A stretch of 34,763 nucleotides of DNA, taken from positions 1 to 34,763 of IMG/VR virus record IMGVR_UViG_3300041415_000049, one strand, 5' to 3'. The first letter of the stretch is position 1. Every line of letters starts with the position of its first letter. The stretch comes from a virus. The notes beneath the pieces were generated by a model, which ran no database searches, was not told the DNA's origin, and was given only the letters and a program-made list of their open reading frames with translations. Below, piece by piece: positions 5,816 to 29,044 of the stretch. Made by a program: the position numbers and the translations under genes.

Positions 5816-6319
5816 TCATCCATCAGCTGCTGCATCTCCTTCTTGATCTCTCGGACGTGAGCCCCCCTTTTTCCCCCTCCGTGCGAATGACCGCTTCGGC
5901 CATTGCTTCTTCGGGCGCTTCGGAGGCTCGAGCTCCGTTTCAGGGTCGAACTTCCGCAGCATCCGACGCCTGAAATCCCCGCTTTCTTTTGCTATTCGCC
6001 TGGTGCGGGCTATCTCGGTCACGTCGGCTCCGCGCTTCGACGCCTTCGATCCGAAGGTCTTGGCGGCATGGCAGTCGACGTGTTTTGCGAAGACGTAACC
6101 CTCGTCATTCGACGGGGGGATCGTGTCCCTCGCTTCTGGATCCCAAGAGCGCAGTTGCAGCGCGGGGAAGTGATCGAACTGGGTATCTTCCAGCGTGCCG
6201 AGCTTCTCGGAACAGGTAGCGCAGGCGCCGCCCTGTATGACCACCACCTTGAGCTTCACCTTGTCCGGTATGGCCTTGCGGAAGCCGGGTGGTGGGGCGA
6301 GGGCGGGTTCACTAAACAT
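5816..6319 (-). CDS. HNH family endonuclease
   Basis: A 167-residue protein with an HNH-type metal finger: CATC (C33, C36), the FDH segment at 48-50, and HVDCHAAK (H80, C83, H84), the usual CxxC...DH...H-x-x-CH arrangement. Phage HNH proteins nick or cut DNA, often together with terminase or in homing. The C-terminal ~60 residues are strongly basic (RPKKQWPKRSFARR) and could bind DNA. I chose the ATG at 6319 because a promoter with the -10 box ending 6 bases before it would give a nearly leaderless message. The frame stays open upstream, including a TTG at 6346, but that stretch contains the operator and a fossil of a repeat. Downstream lies a 203-bp gap with no convincing gene. Confidence 0.75.
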   Translation of the reverse strand: MFSEPALAPPPGFRKAIPDKVKLKVVVIQGGACATCSEKLGTLEDTQFDHFPALQLRSWDPEARDTIPPSNDEGYVFAKHVDCHAAKTFGSKASKRGADVTEIARTRRIAKESGDFRRRMLRKFDPETELEPPKRPKKQWPKRSFARRGKKGGSRPRDQEGDAAADG

Positions 6320-6325
6320 TCGCTT

Positions 6326-6354
6326 TTGATATTTGTATTCGTGCAAAAGGTCAA
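6326..6354 (-). promoter_or_regulatory. Promoter with operator in its spacer, before the HNH gene
   Basis: On the minus strand there is TTGACC (6349-6354), a 17-base spacer, and TATCAA (6326-6331). The spacer is almost exactly filled by the dyad TTTGTATTCGTGCAAA (6332-6347), which belongs to the operator family described elsewhere. Transcription would start around 6319, at or beside the ATG, giving a leaderless or nearly leaderless transcript. Repression by steric block is the simple reading. Confidence 0.6.
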
Positions 6355-6402
6355 GCGGATGTTCGGCGACGCCCCATCCGTTCGACGGATTAGTTAGTCC
6401 GC

Positions 6403-6461
6403 TTTGCTCAATGTCCGCAATCCCCGGACGGCGACCTGTGTTTGCATTGCAGCAAAATTTG
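6403..6461. repeat. Dispersed repeat, copy at left edge of TIR cargo
   Basis: The stretch aligns with 23918-23976 (shared TTGCTCAATGTCCGC, then GCGACC, then TTGC-TGC-GCA-AATTT with few changes). It marks the junction between the backbone HNH gene and the plus-strand TIR cargo. Read on the minus strand it encodes ADIEQ, the start of the small protein family whose pseudogene lies at 23699-23936. It also contains TTTGCATTGCAGCAAA, which by chance or design fits the operator pattern. Confidence 0.6.
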
Positions 6462-6607: not shown

Positions 6608-7738
6608 ATGAACAAGTCCTCTGAACCTCATGTGTTCATCTCTTACGTTCGAGAGGATCGGCGTTTAGTGGAGACGCTGTGCGGGCAGCTTCGGCACAAC
6701 GACATAGCCGTGTGGCTCGACCGCGAAAAGATTCGTCCCGGTCAAAGATGGCAAATCGCAATCCGCCGAGCGATTGAGGAAGGAGCGTTCTTCATTGCAT
6801 GCTTTTCCAAATCCTATTCTCTTCGGGCGAAGTCATACATGAACGTCGAATTGAGTATTGCCGTCGAACAACTTCGCGCGAGGCCGACGGACCGCGCTTG
6901 GTTCATACCAATTCTCTTCGAAGGTGGCGCTGTGCCAGAAAGGCCTATCGGCGGCGGCGAGACGCTGCGGGATTTTCAATGGGTCGACCTTTCAGATGAA
7001 TGGAATAGCGGCGTCGAACGAATCCTCAGCGTACTCCGTCCAGAAGAACGCTTGGGGTCAGCACCGGCTCGGCGGGAAGATCGCACAGTCACAATCTTGG
7101 TAACTGACCTTGTTGGTTCGTCGTCGATAGCGGGCAGAACCGAATTTGAAGATTTCAGTCGACTGCTTCTTCGGGTCAATACCGAGCTACTTCAAATTGT
7201 GGCGGCCCACGAAGGTCACGCGACCAAGCTCATGGGCGATGGAATGATCGCAGAGTTCGAACTAGCATCAAATGCGATTGCTTGTGCCCTTGCAATTCAG
7301 GATCACATGAACGCGTCCAACGATCTACGTGAACTCAGGATGCGAATTGGACTTTCCGCAGGGGTTGTCCCTCAGGAGCGTGGTTCCGATATTGGGATCG
7401 CCGCTAACCTAGCTGTTCGGGTCTGTAGCGTCGCCAGAAGCGGGCAGATTCTTATGTCAGAAGCCGTCCGTCCACTCGGTGTGGGTGAAAGAATTCAACT
7501 ACGTGAACTGGGACCAACGAAGTTGAAGGGGTTCCCCGAGCGTGTGCTCATCTATGAAGTCCGCCGCGCAGCCGTGAGCGTCTGGACGCGGCTGGCGCAT
7601 GTCCCTATCGGCGCGTTGTTGCACCGCGCCACATTCCGCTGGAACGTCTTCTTTGGGTCATTGCGACCGGGTCGAGCCGAAACAGGTCAGGCCAAGTCCA
7701 TTATTCCGCCGAAAGCGAAAGGATATTCGGAGGATTAG
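6608..7738 (+). CDS. TIR domain fused to class III nucleotide cyclase
   Basis: A 376-residue two-domain protein. Residues 7-140 form a TIR domain (HVFISYVRED, WLDREKIRPGQRW, MNVELSIA with Glu81 at the catalytic position of NAD-cleaving TIRs). Residues 158-318 form a class III cyclase: metal Asp167 in TDLVGSS, K207 and Asp211 in KLMGDG, Asp261, Asn267 and Arg271 in the DIGIAANLAVRV segment, so the main catalytic positions appear present. The last ~27 residues from G350 are encoded by a dispersed repeat and are unlike the family. The ATG at 6608 opens directly onto the TIR domain; the frame is open upstream to 6404, but through repeat sequence. The Shine-Dalgarno is weak. A signalling or antiphage role is inferred from the TIR domain and the adjacent NLR-like gene. 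Whether ATP, GTP or another nucleotide is the substrate cannot be read. Confidence 0.85.
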   Translation: MNKSSEPHVFISYVREDRRLVETLCGQLRHNDIAVWLDREKIRPGQRWQIAIRRAIEEGAFFIACFSKSYSLRAKSYMNVELSIAVEQLRARPTDRAWFIPILFEGGAVPERPIGGGETLRDFQWVDLSDEWNSGVERILSVLRPEERLGSAPARREDRTVTILVTDLVGSSSIAGRTEFEDFSRLLLRVNTELLQIVAAHEGHATKLMGDGMIAEFELASNAIACALAIQDHMNASNDLRELRMRIGLSAGVVPQERGSDIGIAANLAVRVCSVARSGQILMSEAVRPLGVGERIQLRELGPTKLKGFPERVLIYEVRRAAVSVWTRLAHVPIGALLHRATFRWNVFFGSLRPGRAETGQAKSIIPPKAKGYSED

Positions 7739-7747
7739 CGGCTCCGC
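7652..7747. repeat. Dispersed repeat captured as 3' end of the TIR-cyclase gene
   Basis: This 96-bp stretch aligns along its length with 28948-29044: both run from TTTGGGTCA through GGGTCGA, GGTC-GGCCA-GTCC and CCGCCGAAAGCGAAAG to CGGCTCCGC. Here it lies inside the reading frame and supplies codons 350-376 and the stop of the TIR-cyclase. At 28948 it is intergenic. Confidence 0.8.
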
Positions 7748-7924
7748 GACAGTCCATTGCATACCGGTGGCGCCGCCATGGACTTGACTCAAGCTCCGAA
7801 ACTAGAGCCTCGAATCCTGCGCTGCGAACTTTTCCGGCAGCCGAAGCCAGGCGGCTGGTGGAGCGCTTCGAATGGCACTGTAATCCGAACCGATTGCTTG
7901 CTTCCCAAGCCACGCAAGTATCGG

Positions 7925-8034
7925 CTTGGGGTCATACGCGACCAGGCCGAGCAAGCAGCGATTTCGGCCATGTCCGTGATGCACCGATAGTGAATATTGC
8001 GTTGCAGCAAAATTTCGCGATGTGCCAGGAACGG
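7925..8034. repeat. Dispersed repeat between the two TIR genes
   Basis: About 110 bp that align with 26146-26259: both begin GGGTCAT-CGCGAC, continue through GAGC-AGCAGCGA and CGGCCA-GTC and end TTGCGTTGCAGCAAAATTTC with GATGTGCCAG. It separates the TIR-cyclase from the TIR-NB-ARC gene, so the two may have arrived separately. The 380 bp from 7739 to 8120 contain no other convincing gene. Confidence 0.8.
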
Positions 8035-8120
8035 ACTGTCCAAGGTGGTTGCACGCTCTCTCGCTCACGAGGATGATGGCCGGGCCCGAAATTCACCGAA
8101 CCGGCGCAGGGTCGTGAGGG

Positions 8121-10736
8121 ATGACCGACATCTTCATCAGCTATACGATCAGCGACCGCGACTGGGCATTCTGGATCGCTAACGAGTTGGAGGCGCTCGG
8201 CCATGCGCCGCTCGTCCACGAATGGGAGATCAAGCGCGGCGACGATATCTATGCCTGGATGGAGCAGCGCCACGACGCCGCCGACCACGTGCTGTGCGTG
8301 CTCTCAGATGAGTACCTCAAGGCACCGTACTCGACGCTCGAACGCAGCGCCGCCATCTGGCAGGCGGCGGCTAAGCGGCCGGGCTTCGTTCTGTTCGTTG
8401 CGGTCAAGCCGTGCCGGCTGCCGAGCCTAATCGACCACTACTGCCGCTGCGAGCTCTACGGCATCTCCGACGACGAGGCACGCCGTCGCTTCCGCGAGTT
8501 CATGCAGCGGCCCGCCACCTCGGCGCCGATCGCCTATCCGGGCGAGACTTTTGCGGTCTCCAATATCCCCATCCGAGTGCCGACGCATTTTTTCGGGCGC
8601 GAAGAGTCATTCGTCGCCATCGAGACGGCGCTCGCGCGCTACGAGGGCCGCGTCGCTATCACGGCGCTGCACGGACTGCGCGGCGTGGGCAAGACCACCC
8701 TGGCGGCCGCCTATGCCGAGCGCCATCGCGGCGACTACCGGGCAACATGGTGGATCCGGGCGCAGACCGACTTCACCATACGCGCCGACTTGGTCGGCCT
8801 TGGTGCCCGACTCGAATGGGCGACAGCCGACCAGAAGGAGGAGCCGGCGCTCGCGGCGGTGGCGGAACGCCTGCGTCACCAGGGCGAAGGCATCCTACTC
8901 ATCTACGACAGCGCGATCGATGCCACCTCGCTGGAGCCGTATTTGCCGCGCGGCGGACGTGCGCATGTGCTGGTGACATCCAATGCGTATGCATGGCGCG
9001 GGATTGCCGAACCGGTCGAACTGCGGGTGTGGCCGAAGGAGATCGGGGCCGACTACCTGATCGCCCGCACCGGCCGCGGTGCCGAGCGTACCGCCGCCGA
9101 GGCGCTGTCGGAGGTGCTCGGTGGCCTGCCGCTGGCGCACGAGCAGGCGGCGGCCTACTGCGAACGGCTCAATATCGCCATTGCCGAATACGCCAGACGG
9201 TTTCAGACCGCGCCGGCGCGACTGATGGATGACAGGCGCCATACGCCGGCCGCGTATCATGGTGGGTTGACTGTCGCAAAGACCTTCGGGCTCGCGATCG
9301 AGGAAGCCGCAAAGCTCCATCCTGCGGCCGAGCCGCTGATCGTGTACGCCGCGCTGCTGGCGCCCGAGCCGATACCACTCTACCTATTCTCCGAAGCGCG
9401 GGAGAAGCTTGGCGAGCCCCTCGCCACAGCGCTTGCGGACGACGGCCTAGACGAGGCGGTCGCTGCCCTGCGCGCCTTCGCGCTGGTCGACGCCCAGACG
9501 ATCGCAGATGAGCGCGACTCCGCGGTGACCGCCGACTGCATGCGGTTGCATCGGCTGGTTCGGCAAGTGGCGGCTGCGCGTCGCGACCGCGCGACGAGCG
9601 ACGAGGTGCGACGCGCGCTGATGGAGGCGGCCGCAACCGTGTATCCGGAGAACGTCTACCATGATCCGCAGACATGGCCGCGCGCGCGGAGGCTGGATGC
9701 GCTCGTGCTGGCATTGGCCCGCGACACGGTTGCGCCGGGCGGCGAAGCAAACGCCGCGTTCCTGCTCTATCAAGCGGGAGCGTATCGGTATTATGCGCTT
9801 GGCACTTACGCCGGGGCGCGGCCGCTCTATGAGCGCGCGCTGGCTGTCCGCGAGAAAGTGCTCGGCCCCGAGCACCCCGATACGGCAATAAGCCTCGGCG
9901 GCCTCGCCCTGCTGCTACACTCCCAGGGTGAGCTTGCGGCCGCGCGACCACTCCTTGCGCGCGCGCTGGCGATCTGCGAGAAAATACTTGGCCCTGAGCA
10001 TCCGCACACGTCGGCGACCCTCAATAACCTCGCCTTGCTGCTGGAGGACCAGGACGACCTTACGGCCGCGCGGCGGCTCTATGAGCGCGCGCTGGCGATC
10101 GACGAGAAAGTATTCGGCCCCGAGCATCCATTCACTGCGACGGTCATTAGCAACCTGGGATTGCTGCTGGCGACTCAGGGCGACCTTACCGCCGCGCGAC
10201 GGCTCCTAGAGCGTGCGCTCGTGATCCGCGAGAACGTGCTCGGCCCGAAGCACCCCGACACGGCGGCGAGCCTAAACAATCTCGCCTTGATACTAGAGGG
10301 CAACGCTGAGTTTGCCGCCGCGCGGCCGCTCTATGAGCGCGCGCTGGCGATCTGCGAGAAGATACTTGGCCCTGAGCATCCCCACACGGTGACGAGCCTC
10401 AAAAATCTTGCCCATCTGCTGCATGCCCAGGGCGATTATATGGCGGCGCGGCCGCTGTACGAGCGCGCGCTGGCGATCGACGAGAAGGTGCTTGGCCTAG
10501 AGCATCCCGAGACAAATCGCGCTCGGTGCAGTTTCGCGATATCGATGCTCGCTCTTGATAACGTCAGCGAAGCTCTTACGCTCGGCGAGGCAGCGCTCGC
10601 TGGCCACGACAAGGCGCTCGGCGGCGAGCACAACTGGACCAAGGACGCCGCCCGGGTTACCGCCGATGCGCTCGCGGCCCTCGGCCGCGCCGAGGAGGCG
10701 AAAGCACTACGCGAGAAGCACCGGATCGAGGGCTAA
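8121..10736 (+). CDS. TIR-NB-ARC-TPR protein (bacterial NLR-like)
   Basis: An 871-residue protein with three modules. TIR, residues 1-130: IFISYTISDRDWAFW, HEWEIKRGDDI, and Glu74 in YSTLERSAA at the catalytic position. NB-ARC/STAND NTPase, about 155-430: P-loop GLRGVGKTT at 185-193, Walker B LLIYDSA, a sensor-like VLVTSN, and GLPLAHEQAAAY near 335. TPRs of the kinesin-light-chain type fill about 560-830, in 42-residue units. In known bacterial STAND and TIR-NLR defences the repeats sense a phage product, the NTPase oligomerises and the TIR depletes NAD; that is family knowledge, not shown here. The ATG follows GTGAGGG directly. The gene ends 35 bp from a convergent backbone gene, so it looks like cargo in opposite orientation. 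Function inferred; architecture clear. Confidence 0.9.
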   Translation: MTDIFISYTISDRDWAFWIANELEALGHAPLVHEWEIKRGDDIYAWMEQRHDAADHVLCVLSDEYLKAPYSTLERSAAIWQAAAKRPGFVLFVAVKPCRLPSLIDHYCRCELYGISDDEARRRFREFMQRPATSAPIAYPGETFAVSNIPIRVPTHFFGREESFVAIETALARYEGRVAITALHGLRGVGKTTLAAAYAERHRGDYRATWWIRAQTDFTIRADLVGLGARLEWATADQKEEPALAAVAERLRHQGEGILLIYDSAIDATSLEPYLPRGGRAHVLVTSNAYAWRGIAEPVELRVWPKEIGADYLIARTGRGAERTAAEALSEVLGGLPLAHEQAAAYCERLNIAIAEYARRFQTAPARLMDDRRHTPAAYHGGLTVAKTFGLAIEEAAKLHPAAEPLIVYAALLAPEPIPLYLFSEAREKLGEPLATALADDGLDEAVAALRAFALVDAQTIADERDSAVTADCMRLHRLVRQVAAARRDRATSDEVRRALMEAAATVYPENVYHDPQTWPRARRLDALVLALARDTVAPGGEANAAFLLYQAGAYRYYALGTYAGARPLYERALAVREKVLGPEHPDTAISLGGLALLLHSQGELAAARPLLARALAICEKILGPEHPHTSATLNNLALLLEDQDDLTAARRLYERALAIDEKVFGPEHPFTATVISNLGLLLATQGDLTAARRLLERALVIRENVLGPKHPDTAASLNNLALILEGNAEFAAARPLYERALAICEKILGPEHPHTVTSLKNLAHLLHAQGDYMAARPLYERALAIDEKVLGLEHPETNRARCSFAISMLALDNVSEALTLGEAALAGHDKALGGEHNWTKDAARVTADALAALGRAEEAKALREKHRIEG
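9825..10580 (+). repeat. Six tandem 126-bp units encoding the TPR array
   Basis: Unit starts fall at 9825, 9951, 10077, 10203, 10329 and 10455, exactly 126 bp apart. Each opens with a version of CTC-TAT-GAGCGCGCGCTGGC and encodes a 42-residue TPR containing the conserved LGPEHP turn. Several units are nearly identical over tens of bases, which suggests recent expansion or gene conversion; the last unit is more divergent. This is a coding repeat, not a CRISPR array. Confidence 0.9.
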
Positions 10737-10771: not shown

Positions 10772-11233
10772 TCATGCCGCCTCCTTGTAGTGCGATTGAT
10801 GCCGCGCTTCCTTCAGCAGCAGACCGAGCTCGATGCCGGGGATGATGTGGGTCTGGATTTTCTCCATCGCATTATCGAAGTAGGCCTTGAACTCGTCCTC
10901 CGCCATGGCCTCGAAGGCGGTCGACGACGGGATCATGATGATCTCGCCGGCTGTCGTGAGGACCGGGCGTACCACGCCGCAGGACAGCAACAGCGTGTCG
11001 TGCAGTGCTTCCTCGGTCGAGAACAGCTCGGTGTTGTGGACGACGAGGCGCAGGATCACCCGGTACAGCCGATGGCGGGGACCGCTACGGGGTTGGGCGA
11101 ACTGGGCTCGAACGGGCACGTTGTCCGGGATCGACTCGAACATCTCGACGTCGTAAGGCGCGTGCGGAACCAGATGGCCCTCGACCTTGCGGACAAGGAT
11201 CCATTTGCTCCTGGATTTGTTGCTGGCGCTCAT
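10772..11233 (-). CDS. DUF1367-like phage protein
   Basis: A 153-residue protein. The opening WILVRKVEGHLVPHAP and the segment RAQFAQPRSGPRHRLYRVIL resemble the DUF1367 pattern found in lambdoid recombination/nin regions, where an arginine-rich RxRxxxxHR stretch precedes a helical half. No catalytic motif is visible. It is the last gene of the leftward recombination operon, 84 bp beyond the putative annealing protein. A GATGAG stretch serves as a weak ribosome-binding site. The family match is by memory of the pattern; the function is unknown. Confidence 0.5.
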   Translation of the reverse strand: MSASNKSRSKWILVRKVEGHLVPHAPYDVEMFESIPDNVPVRAQFAQPRSGPRHRLYRVILRLVVHNTELFSTEEALHDTLLLSCGVVRPVLTTAGEIIMIPSSTAFEAMAEDEFKAYFDNAMEKIQTHIIPGIELGLLLKEARHQSHYKEAA

Positions 11234-23698: not shown

Positions 23699-23936
23699 TC
23701 ATCGAAGACATTCACGATGCCCACGGCCGCCGTCCTTACGGAAGTAGAGGCGGTCTTCATCGCTCGAAAACACCGCAGCGAATGTGGCTTCGACGTCGGT
23801 GCTGTTCTTGATGGCCCATTCTTCGCTGTCGAACGCGTATCCAGCTGCAAAGAGCATCCTCGATCGCCTTTCGGACAATCTGACGCTCGATCTCTATCGT
23901 TGCGTTGTTGAGCGCGGCTTGCTCAATGTCCGCCAT
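23699..23936 (-). pseudogene. Frameshifted small protein gene (MADIEQ family)
   Basis: Starting at ATG 23936 the frame reads MADIEQAALNNATIEIERQI and on to KAIEDAL; there the coding signal jumps frame and goes on as AGYAFDSEEWAIKNSTDVEA and SSDEDRLYFRKDG to a TGA at 23699. One indel separates the halves. The joined product would be about 79 residues. The start region coincides with a dispersed repeat, of which 6403 is another partial copy. I recall similar small proteins in Bradyrhizobium-type genomes but cannot name a function. Confidence 0.6.
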
Positions 23937-23996
23937 GCCTCGACCGCGACCGATTGTTGCGCTGCGGCAGAATTTCGTGATGCGCCAAAATTCGAC
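23918..23996. repeat. Dispersed repeat before the ParA-like gene
   Basis: It shares TTGCTCAATGTCCGC with 6403 and the block TTGCGCTGCGGCAGAATTTC plus GATGCGCCA with 8000 and 26220 (TTGCGTTGCAGCAAAATTTC). It lies at the left side of the ParA/metallopeptidase module. Confidence 0.75.
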
Positions 23997-24229
23997 TTTG
24001 TAAAAATGCAAACTGGTGAGCGCCGCGCGCTCAGGGCAGTCTCCGAGTGGTGTTTTTTGTTCATCGGCAGAACTGAAACGCATACTCCGGGGCTAACGAG
24101 CGCATAGACCCGTGACCGTTCGCCTCGACTAACTCATCGAGGCGCGCTCACGACTCCCACGATCCGCCCCTCTTGCTTTCACCCGGTGGTTGCGCGTAAG
24201 TTGGGGTCCTTTAAGCGGAGCTATTTCCA

Positions 24230-25272
24230 ATGACCGATCAAGTGGCGCCCATCATAGCCTTTTTCAATCACAAAGGCGGAGTGAGCAAGACTACGACAAC
24301 TTTCAATCTCGGGTGGGCGCTTGCTGACTTAGGGAAAAAGGTGCTGATCGTCGATGGGGATCCGCAGTGCAATCTCACCGGTACGGTGCTTGGATTCGAC
24401 GGTGTAGATGACTTCGAGTCCTTCTATAAAAAGAACCCCAACTCAAATATAAGTGACGCGCTCGATCCCGTATTTAAAGGAACGGGCGCACCATTGAAAC
24501 CTGCGAATATAACAAAAACGCCGAACAAAAATCTCTTCTTGTTGGCCGGCAACATTGCCCTAGCCGAAAATGAAACCCAGATCGCGGTTGCCGTTTCAAC
24601 GAGCGCCGCCATTCCAGCGCTTCAAAACATTCCCGGATCGATAGGCGCGCTGTTGCGGATGACAGCCATCGCCGAAAAGATCGACGTTGTGCTGATCGAT
24701 ATGAGTCCGAGCGTCGGTGCTCTTAACCAATGCTTCCTGATGGGGTCAGACTTTTTCATAATTCCAACTTCGCCAGATTACTACTGCAACCAGGCGATAA
24801 CGTCACTGGCCCGCGTCGTTCCCAGATGGAACGCCGCGGTTGCCTCTTTCCGAGCCGGTGCTTTGCTCTACCCCTTTCCTCTTCAACCGCCTAAGTTTGC
24901 GGGATCATCTCGCAACGATACAGGCCGCGGCTGGGAAGCCCCGCTTCATCATTCCAGCAGTGGATCAACATCATCAAAAAGACGGTGCTGACCGAACTAA
25001 TTCCGGTGTTGCAAAAGGAAGCAATGGCAATCAGCTCCGCCGACTTCGTAAAAGCCAAGCCCGGCGATAGCCCGTACAATCTCGCCAACATTGCAGACTT
25101 TAATTCGCTGATTGCTCAATCACAAAAGTTCAATGTGCCTGTCTTTGCTTTGACGGACGCTCAGATCGAGCAAAAAGGGCAGGTTCTTCAGAATATGGCA
25201 GAGAGCGGAGATAACTTCAAAACGACTTTTAAGAACCTCGCTACATGCGTGCGGAGCTTGGTCGGGATCTAG
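24230..25272 (+). pseudogene. ParA/MinD-type ATPase, interrupted by a frameshift
   Basis: The frame starting at 24230 encodes a ParA ATPase: deviant Walker A HKGGVSKTTTTFNLG at ~14-28, VDGDPQCNLTG, and VVLIDMSPSVGAL (Walker A'/B). Near 24901, in the run TTTGCGGGATC, coding moves to another frame, which reads GIISQRYRPRLGSP and then QKEAMAISSADFVKA to a stop at 25272. The original frame instead ends at 24991 with a nonsense tail. One missing G in the GGG run would explain it and give a ~347-residue protein. GGAG lies 9 bases before the start. ParA proteins position DNA or protein cargo; no ParB or centromere is visible. A sequencing error is the main alternative. Confidence 0.8.
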
Positions 25273-26145: not shown

Positions 26146-26259
26146 TGTGGGTCATTCGCGACTAGGCGGAGCCAGCAGCGAGTCCGGCCAAGTCGGCGAC
26201 GCCCCGATACCGACTGAGTTTTGCGTTGCAGCAAAATTTCGTGATGTGCCAGAACCGGA
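26146..26259. repeat. Dispersed repeat between metallopeptidase and HEPN modules
   Basis: It is the full-length counterpart of 7925-8034, and its first ~50 bases also resemble 28948 onwards. The block TTTGCGTTGCAGCAAA at 26220-26235 resembles the operator dyad but belongs to the repeat. Confidence 0.8.
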
Positions 26260-26309
26260 TCTTGCAATTTATTGACTTTGCAGTCACGGGCTTAAAGAAA
26301 AGGGTTTAG

Positions 26310-27095
26310 TTACTCGCCGACGATCGAGAGCAGCGACGCCTGCGCCTCGGCATAGGCCTTGTCGCCGGGATGGCGTGGCTTGGCCGGCGGCGGATTGAAC
26401 GTCACATCCGGCAGCGGCAGCGGGTTGCGGCCGTTGAGGTAAAGTTCGATCAGGGCTTCATTGAGCCCGTGTAGGAACGCGAACATGCGCTTCATCTCGT
26501 CGATGTTGGTGCGCGCCAGCAGCGCGTCGAGTTCGTCCTTGGCGCCTTTGTTGTGCGCGAGGCGGTCGCGGACCTCACCGTAGACCGGCTCATAGATCTT
26601 ACGCCACTCGCGGACCTGCTTCCGCAGTTCGCGGACGTCATCGATCACGATGTCGTGCTTCTCCTTTACGTAGTCGGCGGCCTGCGCGGGGCTGATGAAT
26701 TCCTCCTTGCGCTTGCGCAGGGCCTCGCGGTCGAGCTCTGGCAGGTTCTGCTCGACGGCCTTCAGCAGCAAGCCGACGTTGTGCGCGGATTTCGTATCGA
26801 AGATGCGGCCGAGCCAGATGAACGTCGACACGAACAGCGCGTGGTTGGTCGTCAGCCAGAACATCGAATTCCTGTTAACGGCCGCGAGGACGTCTGGGCG
26901 CTTGGAGAGAAGATCGCGGATCCCGATGTAGGCGAAGAAGGTCTGCTGCGCGGACTCCTCCTCCTTCCGGAAGATCTCGATCTCCTCCTGGATGTCGGGA
27001 GGCGTCGGCGGGACGTAGGACTTCTTTTCGGGCATCTTCGGAGCGCACCATGCAAGGCCGAGCGACGCGAGGATCCTCGTCAGCCGGCGTCCCAT
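26310..27095 (-). CDS. AbiU2-like HEPN-domain protein
   Basis: A 261-residue, mostly helical protein. FVSTFIWLGRIFDTKSAHNV (89-108) and the later VREWRKIYEPVYGEVRDRLAHNKG match the HEPN domain of the AbiU2 group. R176 and H181 give an R-x4-H pair, the ribonuclease motif of HEPN proteins; R178 gives a second nearby Arg. AbiU2 is linked to abortive phage infection, but that role is family knowledge. I take ATG 27095, one base after the stop of the upstream gene, for translational coupling; ATG 27035 is the alternative. It is last of a three-gene operon with an unknown protein and a lipoprotein. Confidence 0.7.
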   Translation of the reverse strand: MGRRLTRILASLGLAWCAPKMPEKKSYVPPTPPDIQEEIEIFRKEEESAQQTFFAYIGIRDLLSKRPDVLAAVNRNSMFWLTTNHALFVSTFIWLGRIFDTKSAHNVGLLLKAVEQNLPELDREALRKRKEEFISPAQAADYVKEKHDIVIDDVRELRKQVREWRKIYEPVYGEVRDRLAHNKGAKDELDALLARTNIDEMKRMFAFLHGLNEALIELYLNGRNPLPLPDVTFNPPPAKPRHPGDKAYAEAQASLLSIVGE

Positions 27096-28502: not shown

Positions 28503-28916
28503 ATGACGATGACCGAACACGCTCTCGACGCCATCAGTCTCGTCCCGCGCGAGCGGGTGTGCGGGCACAACGAGACCGCCCAGGGCGACGACAAGATCAT
28601 TGATGTCGACGTCTTCGTCGCCGGCCGGAAGCGCGGCACGTGGCGCCGGGGCAGCAACGGCAAGAGCTACGGGATGTATCTCGAACTGCTGAAGCGCGAT
28701 GGCTCGATGGAATGGGCACTGCCGTACGGCAGCGGCTACTGCGACGACGCCGAGAACCTCAAGCCAGCGACCGCCCAGCTTCTCATGTCAGGAAAACTGC
28801 CGGACCGGCGGGATTACGTCGAGCGTCGCGCGGTCCACTTCCTGATCGACTACCGCTACGCAATCGTTGCCACGCCGATCGCGGTCGGGCTGTGCTACTG
28901 GCTGGTCGTGCGCTGA
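28503..28916 (+). CDS. Small protein with C-terminal membrane segment
   Basis: A 137-residue protein: a soluble, slightly acidic N-terminal ~110 residues (DVDVFVAGRKRGTWRRG) and a final hydrophobic segment (AIVATPIAVGLCYWLVV) that would anchor it in the inner membrane with the bulk in the cytoplasm. AAGGGG lies 8 bases before the ATG. It follows the secreted protein in one unit. No family recognised. Confidence 0.6.
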   Translation: MTMTEHALDAISLVPRERVCGHNETAQGDDKIIDVDVFVAGRKRGTWRRGSNGKSYGMYLELLKRDGSMEWALPYGSGYCDDAENLKPATAQLLMSGKLPDRRDYVERRAVHFLIDYRYAIVATPIAVGLCYWLVVR

Positions 28917-28947
28917 CCCGTTGCGAGCTTCGCGTCCGCATGTCGCC

Positions 28948-29044
28948 TTTGGGTCAATCGCGACTGGGTCGATCCGACGGCAGGTCCGGCCATGTCCGCT
29001 GTACCGCCGAAAGCGAAAGTATTTTCAGAGATTGGCGGCTCCGC
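28948..29044. repeat. Dispersed repeat at right edge of the accessory region
   Basis: A 97-bp counterpart of 7652-7747. It lies between the last accessory gene and the first backbone gene to the right, so it marks the right boundary of the inserted material. Confidence 0.8.

What the first reader, a model, noticed from the sequence alone, without database searches (positions are those of the whole stretch)
8121..10736. TIR-NB-ARC-TPR (NLR-like) gene in opposite orientation to the phage operon
All three modules are intact, with P-loop at 185-193, GLPL near 335 and a TPR array. Its architecture mirrors plant and animal NLRs and known bacterial STAND antiphage proteins. It stands inside a prophage early region, head-to-tail with another TIR gene. 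The pair may form one defence island carried by the phage against rivals.
Basis: partly seen in the sequence, partly recalled or inferred. Interest (0 to 1): 0.65.

Follow-up and report, generated by a model that had tools for sequence, protein, structure and literature searches.

The report
Phage-borne TIR–NB-ARC–TPR immune-type gene
A virus of soil Bradyrhizobium-type bacteria carries an intact bacterial relative of plant immune receptors, apparently picked up from rhizobial DNA, that probably kills the infected cell by destroying NAD+ when a rival phage enters; the type of gene is already known, but relatives show its killing domain has been swapped between two NAD-destroying families at least twice.

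Summary
ORF 8121-10736 (+, 871 aa) is one intact TIR–NB-ARC–TPR protein: catalytic-type Glu74, P-loop 185, Walker B 259, GLPL 334, MHD-like LHRLV 476, and kinesin-light-chain-type TPRs. It lies in tandem with a TIR–class III cyclase gene. Both oppose the leftward early genes of a phage related to Bradyrhizobium phage BDU-MI-1.

In 22 related phage loci the same slot (ninB to an HNH-like gene) is 1.4-2.3 kb of small phage genes, with no TIR gene. Here it is 4.4 kb, and the phage genes are replaced. Cassette edges carry ~100-nt repeats found in Bradyrhizobium chromosomes but not in the related phages: this is captured cargo. A second insert with the same repeats holds an AbiU2-type HEPN gene.

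Close homologues are rare (3/265 Bradyrhizobium genomes) and sit on a small plasmid or at a variable tldD–coxB chromosomal spot. There the same NB-ARC/TPR chassis carries either TIR or DUF4062, a TIR-like NADase.

Best reading: a single-gene STAND NADase defence system of the TIR-NLR kind already validated on P4 satellites (Rousset 2022), carried as cargo. The claimed two-TIR-gene unit is not supported. New member of a known kind; the recurrent effector swap is the most useful part.

The parts
8121..10736 (+). TIR–NB-ARC–TPR protein, 871 aa (STAND NTPase, NLR-like)
8130..8459 (+). TIR_2 domain (residues 4-113)
   Evidence: Pfam E 2e-20; matches bacterial TIR/NADase structures
8340..8342 (+). 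codon of Glu74, the position of the TIR NADase catalytic glutamate (SDEYL..PYSTLE)
   Evidence: invariant in 8 homologues
8553..9575 (+). NB-ARC region (residues 145-485): P-loop 185, Walker B LLIYD 259, RNBS-B VLVTSN 283 (Asn where most have Arg), GGLPL 334, LHRLV 476
9753..10718 (+). TPR array, 42-residue kinesin-light-chain/NPHP3-type repeats; 126-bp repeats visible in DNA
   Evidence: AF2 pLDDT about 90+
6608..7738 (+). TIR–class III nucleotidyl cyclase fusion, 376 aa (start at ATG 6608, not TTG 6404)
   Evidence: Pfam TIR_2 9e-26, Guanylate_cyc 3.5e-9; closest solved cyclase lipJ/1ybt E 3.5e-16; metal Asp and GDG, N/R motifs present
6368..6460 (.). dispersed repeat of Bradyrhizobium-chromosome type at the left edge of the cargo
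7646..7747 (.). dispersed repeat (rhizobial type) over the end of the TIR-cyclase gene
7889..8035 (.). dispersed repeat (rhizobial type) between the two TIR genes
   Evidence: 81% identical to 26149-26259
5816..6346 (-). conserved phage gene (HNH-like CxxC protein): left edge of the slot
   Evidence: 54-74% identical homologues in relatives
10772..11233 (-). NinB/Orf-family phage recombination gene: right edge of the slot
   Evidence: phrog_319 E 2e-21
26310..27095 (-). HEPN AbiU2-type protein in a second cargo insert (about 23.4-29.05 kb) with the same repeats
   Evidence: PF18734 E 5e-12; repeats 23882-24003, 26148-26267, 28916-29044

Best explanation
It is a single-gene STAND defence protein carried as cargo by a Bradyrhizobium-type temperate phage. 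Inferred mechanism: in the resting state the TPR array holds the ADP-bound NB-ARC closed. A protein of an incoming phage binds the TPR superhelix; the NB-ARC exchanges nucleotide and oligomerises, lining up the N-terminal TIR domains. These cleave NAD+ (Glu74) and the cell stops or dies before the intruder matures, which protects the resident lysogen and its siblings. Shown here: architecture, motifs, selection on the protein, cargo position, rarity, and repeated replacement of the TIR by DUF4062 on the same chassis. Inferred: NADase activity, oligomerisation, trigger, protection.
For: All STAND and TIR motifs are present. The same domain order, TIR–STAND–TPR, was shown to stop phages when taken from P4-like satellites (PMC9122126). 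On the Methylobacterium plasmid pVL1_5 two divergent paralogues share 96% of their NB-ARC but differ at the N-terminus: TIR in one, a DUF4062-like domain in the other (a sub-threshold Pfam match, E 3.5e-4); their TPRs are only 70% alike. At the Bradyrhizobium tldD–coxB spot the chassis has TIR in two genomes and DUF4062 in one. The NB-ARC tree puts both TIR/DUF4062 pairs together with 99-100% support, i.e. at least two swaps. DUF4062 is a TIR-like NADase that aborts phage infection (preprint PMC13174449). Patchy occurrence: 3 of 265 Bradyrhizobium genomes. A second probable Abi-type gene lies in the same phage.
Against: No close homologue lies in another phage. PADLOC gives only generic TIR-domain matches. 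The Bradyrhizobium homologues sit alone between housekeeping genes, not in a defence island. RNBS-B has Asn instead of the usual Arg. No promoter was recognised, though the scan covers only sigma-70-like sites. The TIR part of the AF2 model is of low confidence.
Confidence: 0.62

Rival explanations
1. Passive hitch-hiker: rhizobial chromosomal DNA recombined into the phage at dispersed repeats and replaced dispensable early genes. The gene may work in its old host but does nothing for this phage, which may be a decaying prophage.
For: Repeats at cargo edges match Bradyrhizobium chromosomes and not the related phages; conserved phage genes of the slot are lost; no related phage keeps the cargo; a ParA-like gene in the second insert looks frameshifted.
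Against: Core phage genes are intact (RNR 1133 aa, primase-helicase, helicase, RIIB). Three conflict-type genes among the cargo (TIR-STAND, TIR-cyclase, AbiU2) is more than random host DNA would be expected to give. The protein shows purifying selection, although the branch inside the phage cannot be separated.
Confidence: 0.2
2. A non-defence STAND regulator, such as an AfsR-like signalling ATPase or the FxsT component of an FxSxx-COOH peptide system.
For: NCBIfam FxSxx_TPR scores 379 bits, above its cut-off of 300; AfsR is the best solved NB-ARC match.
Against: No genuine FxSxx-COOH peptide: the two ORFs ending in FxSxx are antisense inside the repressor and RecE genes, and no peptide-processing genes were seen. 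AfsR has a DNA-binding N-terminus, here replaced by TIR or DUF4062. NCBI applies the same FxsT name to the DUF4062 paralogue, so the label tracks the chassis.
Confidence: 0.1
3. The two TIR genes form one system: the TIR-cyclase makes a cyclic nucleotide or NAD-derived signal that feeds the STAND protein, in the manner of Pycsar or Thoeris.
For: Adjacent and co-directional, 0.38 kb apart; the cyclase retains catalytic motifs; weak PycC matches (E 1e-5).
Against: Each gene has its own flanking repeat; homologues of the STAND gene lack the cyclase; neither protein has a cyclic-nucleotide-binding domain.
Confidence: 0.06

Closest known systems
TIR-NLR of P4-like phage satellites (Rousset et al. 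2022, PMC9122126)
   Same: TIR + STAND NTPase + C-terminal TPRs in one gene, carried by a phage-related element; the tested example stops phages including P2-like ones.
   Different: Carrier here is a roughly 120-kb-class alphaproteobacterial phage, inserted inside the early region rather than at a shared hotspot. Direct sequence comparison could not be made (its sequence was not at hand).
FxsT / TIR–AP-ATPase–TPR of FxSxx-COOH systems (NF040586; Kaur et al. 2020, PMC7159879)
   Same: Passes the NCBIfam cut-off; same domain order.
   Different: No FxSxx peptide or peptide-processing partners here.
Swarozyc / DUF4062 TIR-like NADases (preprint PMC13174449, 2026)
   Same: DUF4062 occupies the effector position on the same NB-ARC–TPR chassis in the closest relatives.
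   Different: The phage copy has a true TIR domain; KpSwz has a different auxiliary domain, not NB-ARC–TPR.
Plant TNP (XTNX) proteins, TIR-NBARC-TPR (PMC9806590)
   Same: Same order of modules; a maize TNP kills cells through its TIR catalytic site and P-loop.
   Different: That paper reports that bacterial and plant similarity lies in the nucleotide-binding domain, not in the TIR or TPR; RNBS-B is TTR in plants, TSN here.
Human nephrocystin-3 and TEP1 (DUF4062–NACHT)
   Same: Pfam TPR_NPHP3 matches the TPRs (E 5e-45 phage, 2e-73 DUF4062 paralogue).
   Different: Likeness of architecture and repeat type only; TPR similarity is weak evidence of descent.

Membership tests
STAND NTPase with NB-ARC domain | P-loop, Walker B, GLPL and MHD-like motifs in order | tested here: met
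   positions 185, 259, 334, 476; profile matches AfsR, Roq1, Apaf-1, 6j5t
STAND NTPase with NB-ARC domain | Arg in RNBS-B (TTR/TSR), usual but not universal | tested here: not met
   VLVTSN at 283-288, also VLVTSN in the Methylobacterium homologue; TSR in the Prosthecochloris homologue
TIR NADase | TIR fold with catalytic Glu | tested here: met
   TIR_2 E 2e-20; AbTIR and other bacterial TIRs in profile search; Glu74 invariant
TIR NADase | NAD+ cleavage | not testable with these tools
   needs enzyme assay
TIR-NLR antiphage system (Rousset 2022) | single gene TIR–STAND–TPR on a phage-related element | tested here: met
TIR-NLR antiphage system (Rousset 2022) | sequence homology to the tested protein | not tested
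   sequence not available; PADLOC 2.0.0 gave no TIR-NLR match, but it is not known whether that model is in the library
TIR-NLR antiphage system (Rousset 2022) | protection against phages | not testable with these tools
   needs plaque assays
FxsT of FxSxx-COOH systems (NF040586) | score above curated cut-off | tested here: met
   379 bits against 300
FxsT of FxSxx-COOH systems (NF040586) | FxSxx-COOH peptide and peptide-processing genes nearby | tested here: not met
   only two FxSxx-ending ORFs, both antisense inside phage genes; no such genes among the annotated neighbours
Pycsar (for the TIR-cyclase neighbour) | cyclase plus effector with a cyclic-nucleotide-binding domain | tested here: not met
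   no such domain in either protein by Pfam; PycC matches only E 1e-5 or weaker

The most novel reading that the evidence does not exclude
Alphaproteobacteria, their plasmids and a phage share one STAND sensor chassis whose NAD-destroying effector is swapped as a cassette between two distantly related NADase families (TIR and DUF4062) while the TPR sensor diversifies faster than the NB-ARC. The phage copy is a captured version that has replaced conserved early phage genes, next to a TIR–class III cyclase fusion that may be a further, undescribed defence type.
Probability: 0.3. Interest if true: 0.6.

Novelty: new member of a known kind. Interest (0 to 1): 0.42.

Why it matters
Phage-carried TIR-STAND proteins are known mainly from enterobacterial satellites; this extends them to a large alphaproteobacterial phage group in which relatives show what was replaced. 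The TIR and DUF4062-like paralogues with near-identical NB-ARC on one Methylobacterium plasmid, and the same alternatives at one chromosomal spot in Bradyrhizobium, are natural domain-swap experiments. They allow a direct test of whether a STAND sensor drives unrelated NADase effectors interchangeably, and whether specificity lies in the TPRs.

Tried and rejected
A close phage homologue: none in viral contigs or in annotated phages beyond Wolbachia TPR proteins. The tRNA-Ala that ARAGORN calls at 6051-6140 as an integration site: no Rfam support, and it lies inside a conserved gene. TTGCN6GCAA operators controlling the TIR genes: the palindrome occurs 9 times against 0.48 expected and recurs upstream of phage genes in relatives, but the two copies before the TIR genes lie in host-type repeats, so control by the phage is not claimed. 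An exact motif scan of viral contigs and a stricter motif in 60 Bradyrhizobium genomes found nothing. Assembly chimera: rejected as main explanation because both sides of each insert continue into collinear phage genes. A conserved cargo slot in this phage group: rejected, 22 relatives carry ordinary genes there. Single-sequence AF2 of the TIR-cyclase: pLDDT 36, unusable. Fold search of the full model was filled by TPR proteins and did not test the NB-ARC; the profile search did. The genome-contig scan used only TIR patterns, so it undercounts homologues. In the whole-genome searches few candidates per genome were scored, so counts are lower bounds.

Full report
What is there. ORF 8121-10736 (+) encodes 871 residues. 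Residues 4-113 are a TIR_2 domain, 145-485 an NB-ARC-type STAND ATPase, and about 545-866 a TPR array. Pfam's NB-ARC match is below its cut-off. A profile from eight homologues settles it: AfsR E 6e-18, Roq1 9e-9, Apaf-1 5e-6, 6j5t (RPP13-like protein 4) 6e-6. The TIR profile matches bacterial TIRs including AbTIR. RNBS-B reads TSN rather than TTR/TSR. The TPRs are 42-residue kinesin-light-chain-type repeats, still visible as 126-bp DNA repeats. AF2 predicts the TPRs well (pLDDT about 90 or more) and the TIR poorly. Third codon positions differ twice as often as first and second against the nearest full-length homologue.

Where it is. The window is one complete linear IMG/VR record, collinear with a stretch of Bradyrhizobium phage BDU-MI-1 (KY940711, 121 kb) from the nrd gene through recombination and replication genes to rIIA/rIIB. 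Window and relative both have an integrase, and the window has a CI-type repressor. Several relatives of about 120 kb carry names of the kind IMG/VR gives to viruses found in isolate genomes (my reading of the naming). So the phage is probably temperate, but integration of this copy is not shown.

Cargo. Between the HNH-like gene (ends 6346) and ninB (starts 10772) relatives have 1.4-2.3 kb of small genes on the phage strand; 22 loci, some near-identical, were measured and none has either TIR gene. Here the interval is 4.4 kb, holds the two TIR genes on the opposite strand, and lacks those phage genes. Repeats of about 100 nt at 6368, 7646 and 7889, and at 23882, 26148 and 28916 around a second insert, are related to one another. 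They match Bradyrhizobium chromosomes (35 of 98 genomes for one of them; the others match those same loci) and rhizobial plasmids, but not BDU-MI-1 or the related phage contigs tested. Both inserts are therefore rhizobial-type DNA in a phage backbone. The second insert holds an AbiU2-type HEPN gene.

Relatives of the gene. The closest full-length one is on the 34-kb Methylobacterium indicum plasmid pVL1_5 (60% over 96%). It stands beside a paralogue in divergent orientation whose NB-ARC is 96% identical but whose N-terminus is DUF4062-like (E 3.5e-4, just below Pfam's cut-off) and whose TPRs are 70% identical. The plasmid also carries an 'abortive infection family protein', a HEPN protein and toxin-antitoxin genes. 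In Bradyrhizobium 3 of 265 genomes have a strong NB-ARC homologue, all between tldD and coxB. In 19 further genomes that interval is 1.1-4.8 kb and has no such gene, except that one holds another DUF4062 protein. Of the three, two carry TIR and one DUF4062 (E 6e-18). The tree groups L017 (TIR) with L034 (DUF4062) and the two M. indicum paralogues together, each with at least 99% support. The effector domain was thus exchanged at least twice. Because DUF4062 has been reported as a TIR-like NADase that aborts phage infection (preprint PMC13174449), the exchange supports an NAD-destroying function for the TIR.

How it likely works. By analogy with the tested TIR–STAND–TPR protein of P4-like satellites (PMC9122126), the TPRs would sense a phage product, the NB-ARC would oligomerise, and the TIR would consume NAD+. 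These steps are inferred. The protein should act alone: its homologues lack the TIR-cyclase, and neither of the two TIR proteins has a cyclic-nucleotide-binding domain.

Names. By score it is 'FxsT' (NF040586), but the FxSxx peptide context is absent, and NCBI applies the same name to the DUF4062 paralogue. It works like, and has the architecture of, TIR-NLR; membership by sequence was not tested. Plant TNPs share the module order (PMC9806590).

Verdict. The reading as phage-carried defence is likely but untested, and the paired-gene idea is not supported. It is a new member of a known kind, with a useful natural experiment in effector swapping among its relatives.

Noticed in passing
window 6608-7738 (+): TIR fused to a class III nucleotidyl cyclase with intact catalytic motifs and no cyclic-nucleotide-binding domain; no full-length relative in viral contigs, plasmids, 146 Bradyrhizobium genomes or 397 genomes of the order at the thresholds used. 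Possibly more unusual than the finding itself.
   Followed up: partly
window 5631, 6442, 7997, 15295, 16071, 18669, 21242, 26221, 31628: Palindrome TTGCN6GCAA occurs 9 times (0.48 expected) and recurs just upstream of genes in related phages: a candidate distributed operator or promoter element of this phage group. Three of the nine lie in host-type repeats.
   Followed up: partly
window 26310-27095 (-): AbiU2-type HEPN protein in a second cargo insert flanked by the same rhizobial repeats.
   Followed up: partly
L017, L033, L034, L071-L089 (Bradyrhizobium tldD–coxB interval): A variable chromosomal spot, 1.1 to 6.2 kb between conserved genes, that holds TIR-STAND, DUF4062-STAND or other genes in different strains.
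   Followed up: partly
L015 17665-18186: A DUF4231 protein lies 40 bp upstream of the plasmid TIR–NB-ARC–TPR gene, possibly co-transcribed; absent in the phage.
   Followed up: no
window 24230-25272: ParA-like gene appears split by a frameshift (24230-24991 and 24985-25272).
   Followed up: no
window 6051-6140: ARAGORN tRNA-Ala call is a probable false positive inside a conserved coding gene; Rfam does not support it.
   Followed up: yes
L035 8001-11492: Another Bradyrhizobium protein with the same TIR type on a different 1163-aa body, next to a gene that looks like a DUF2235-type protein: the TIR is a mobile module.
   Followed up: no
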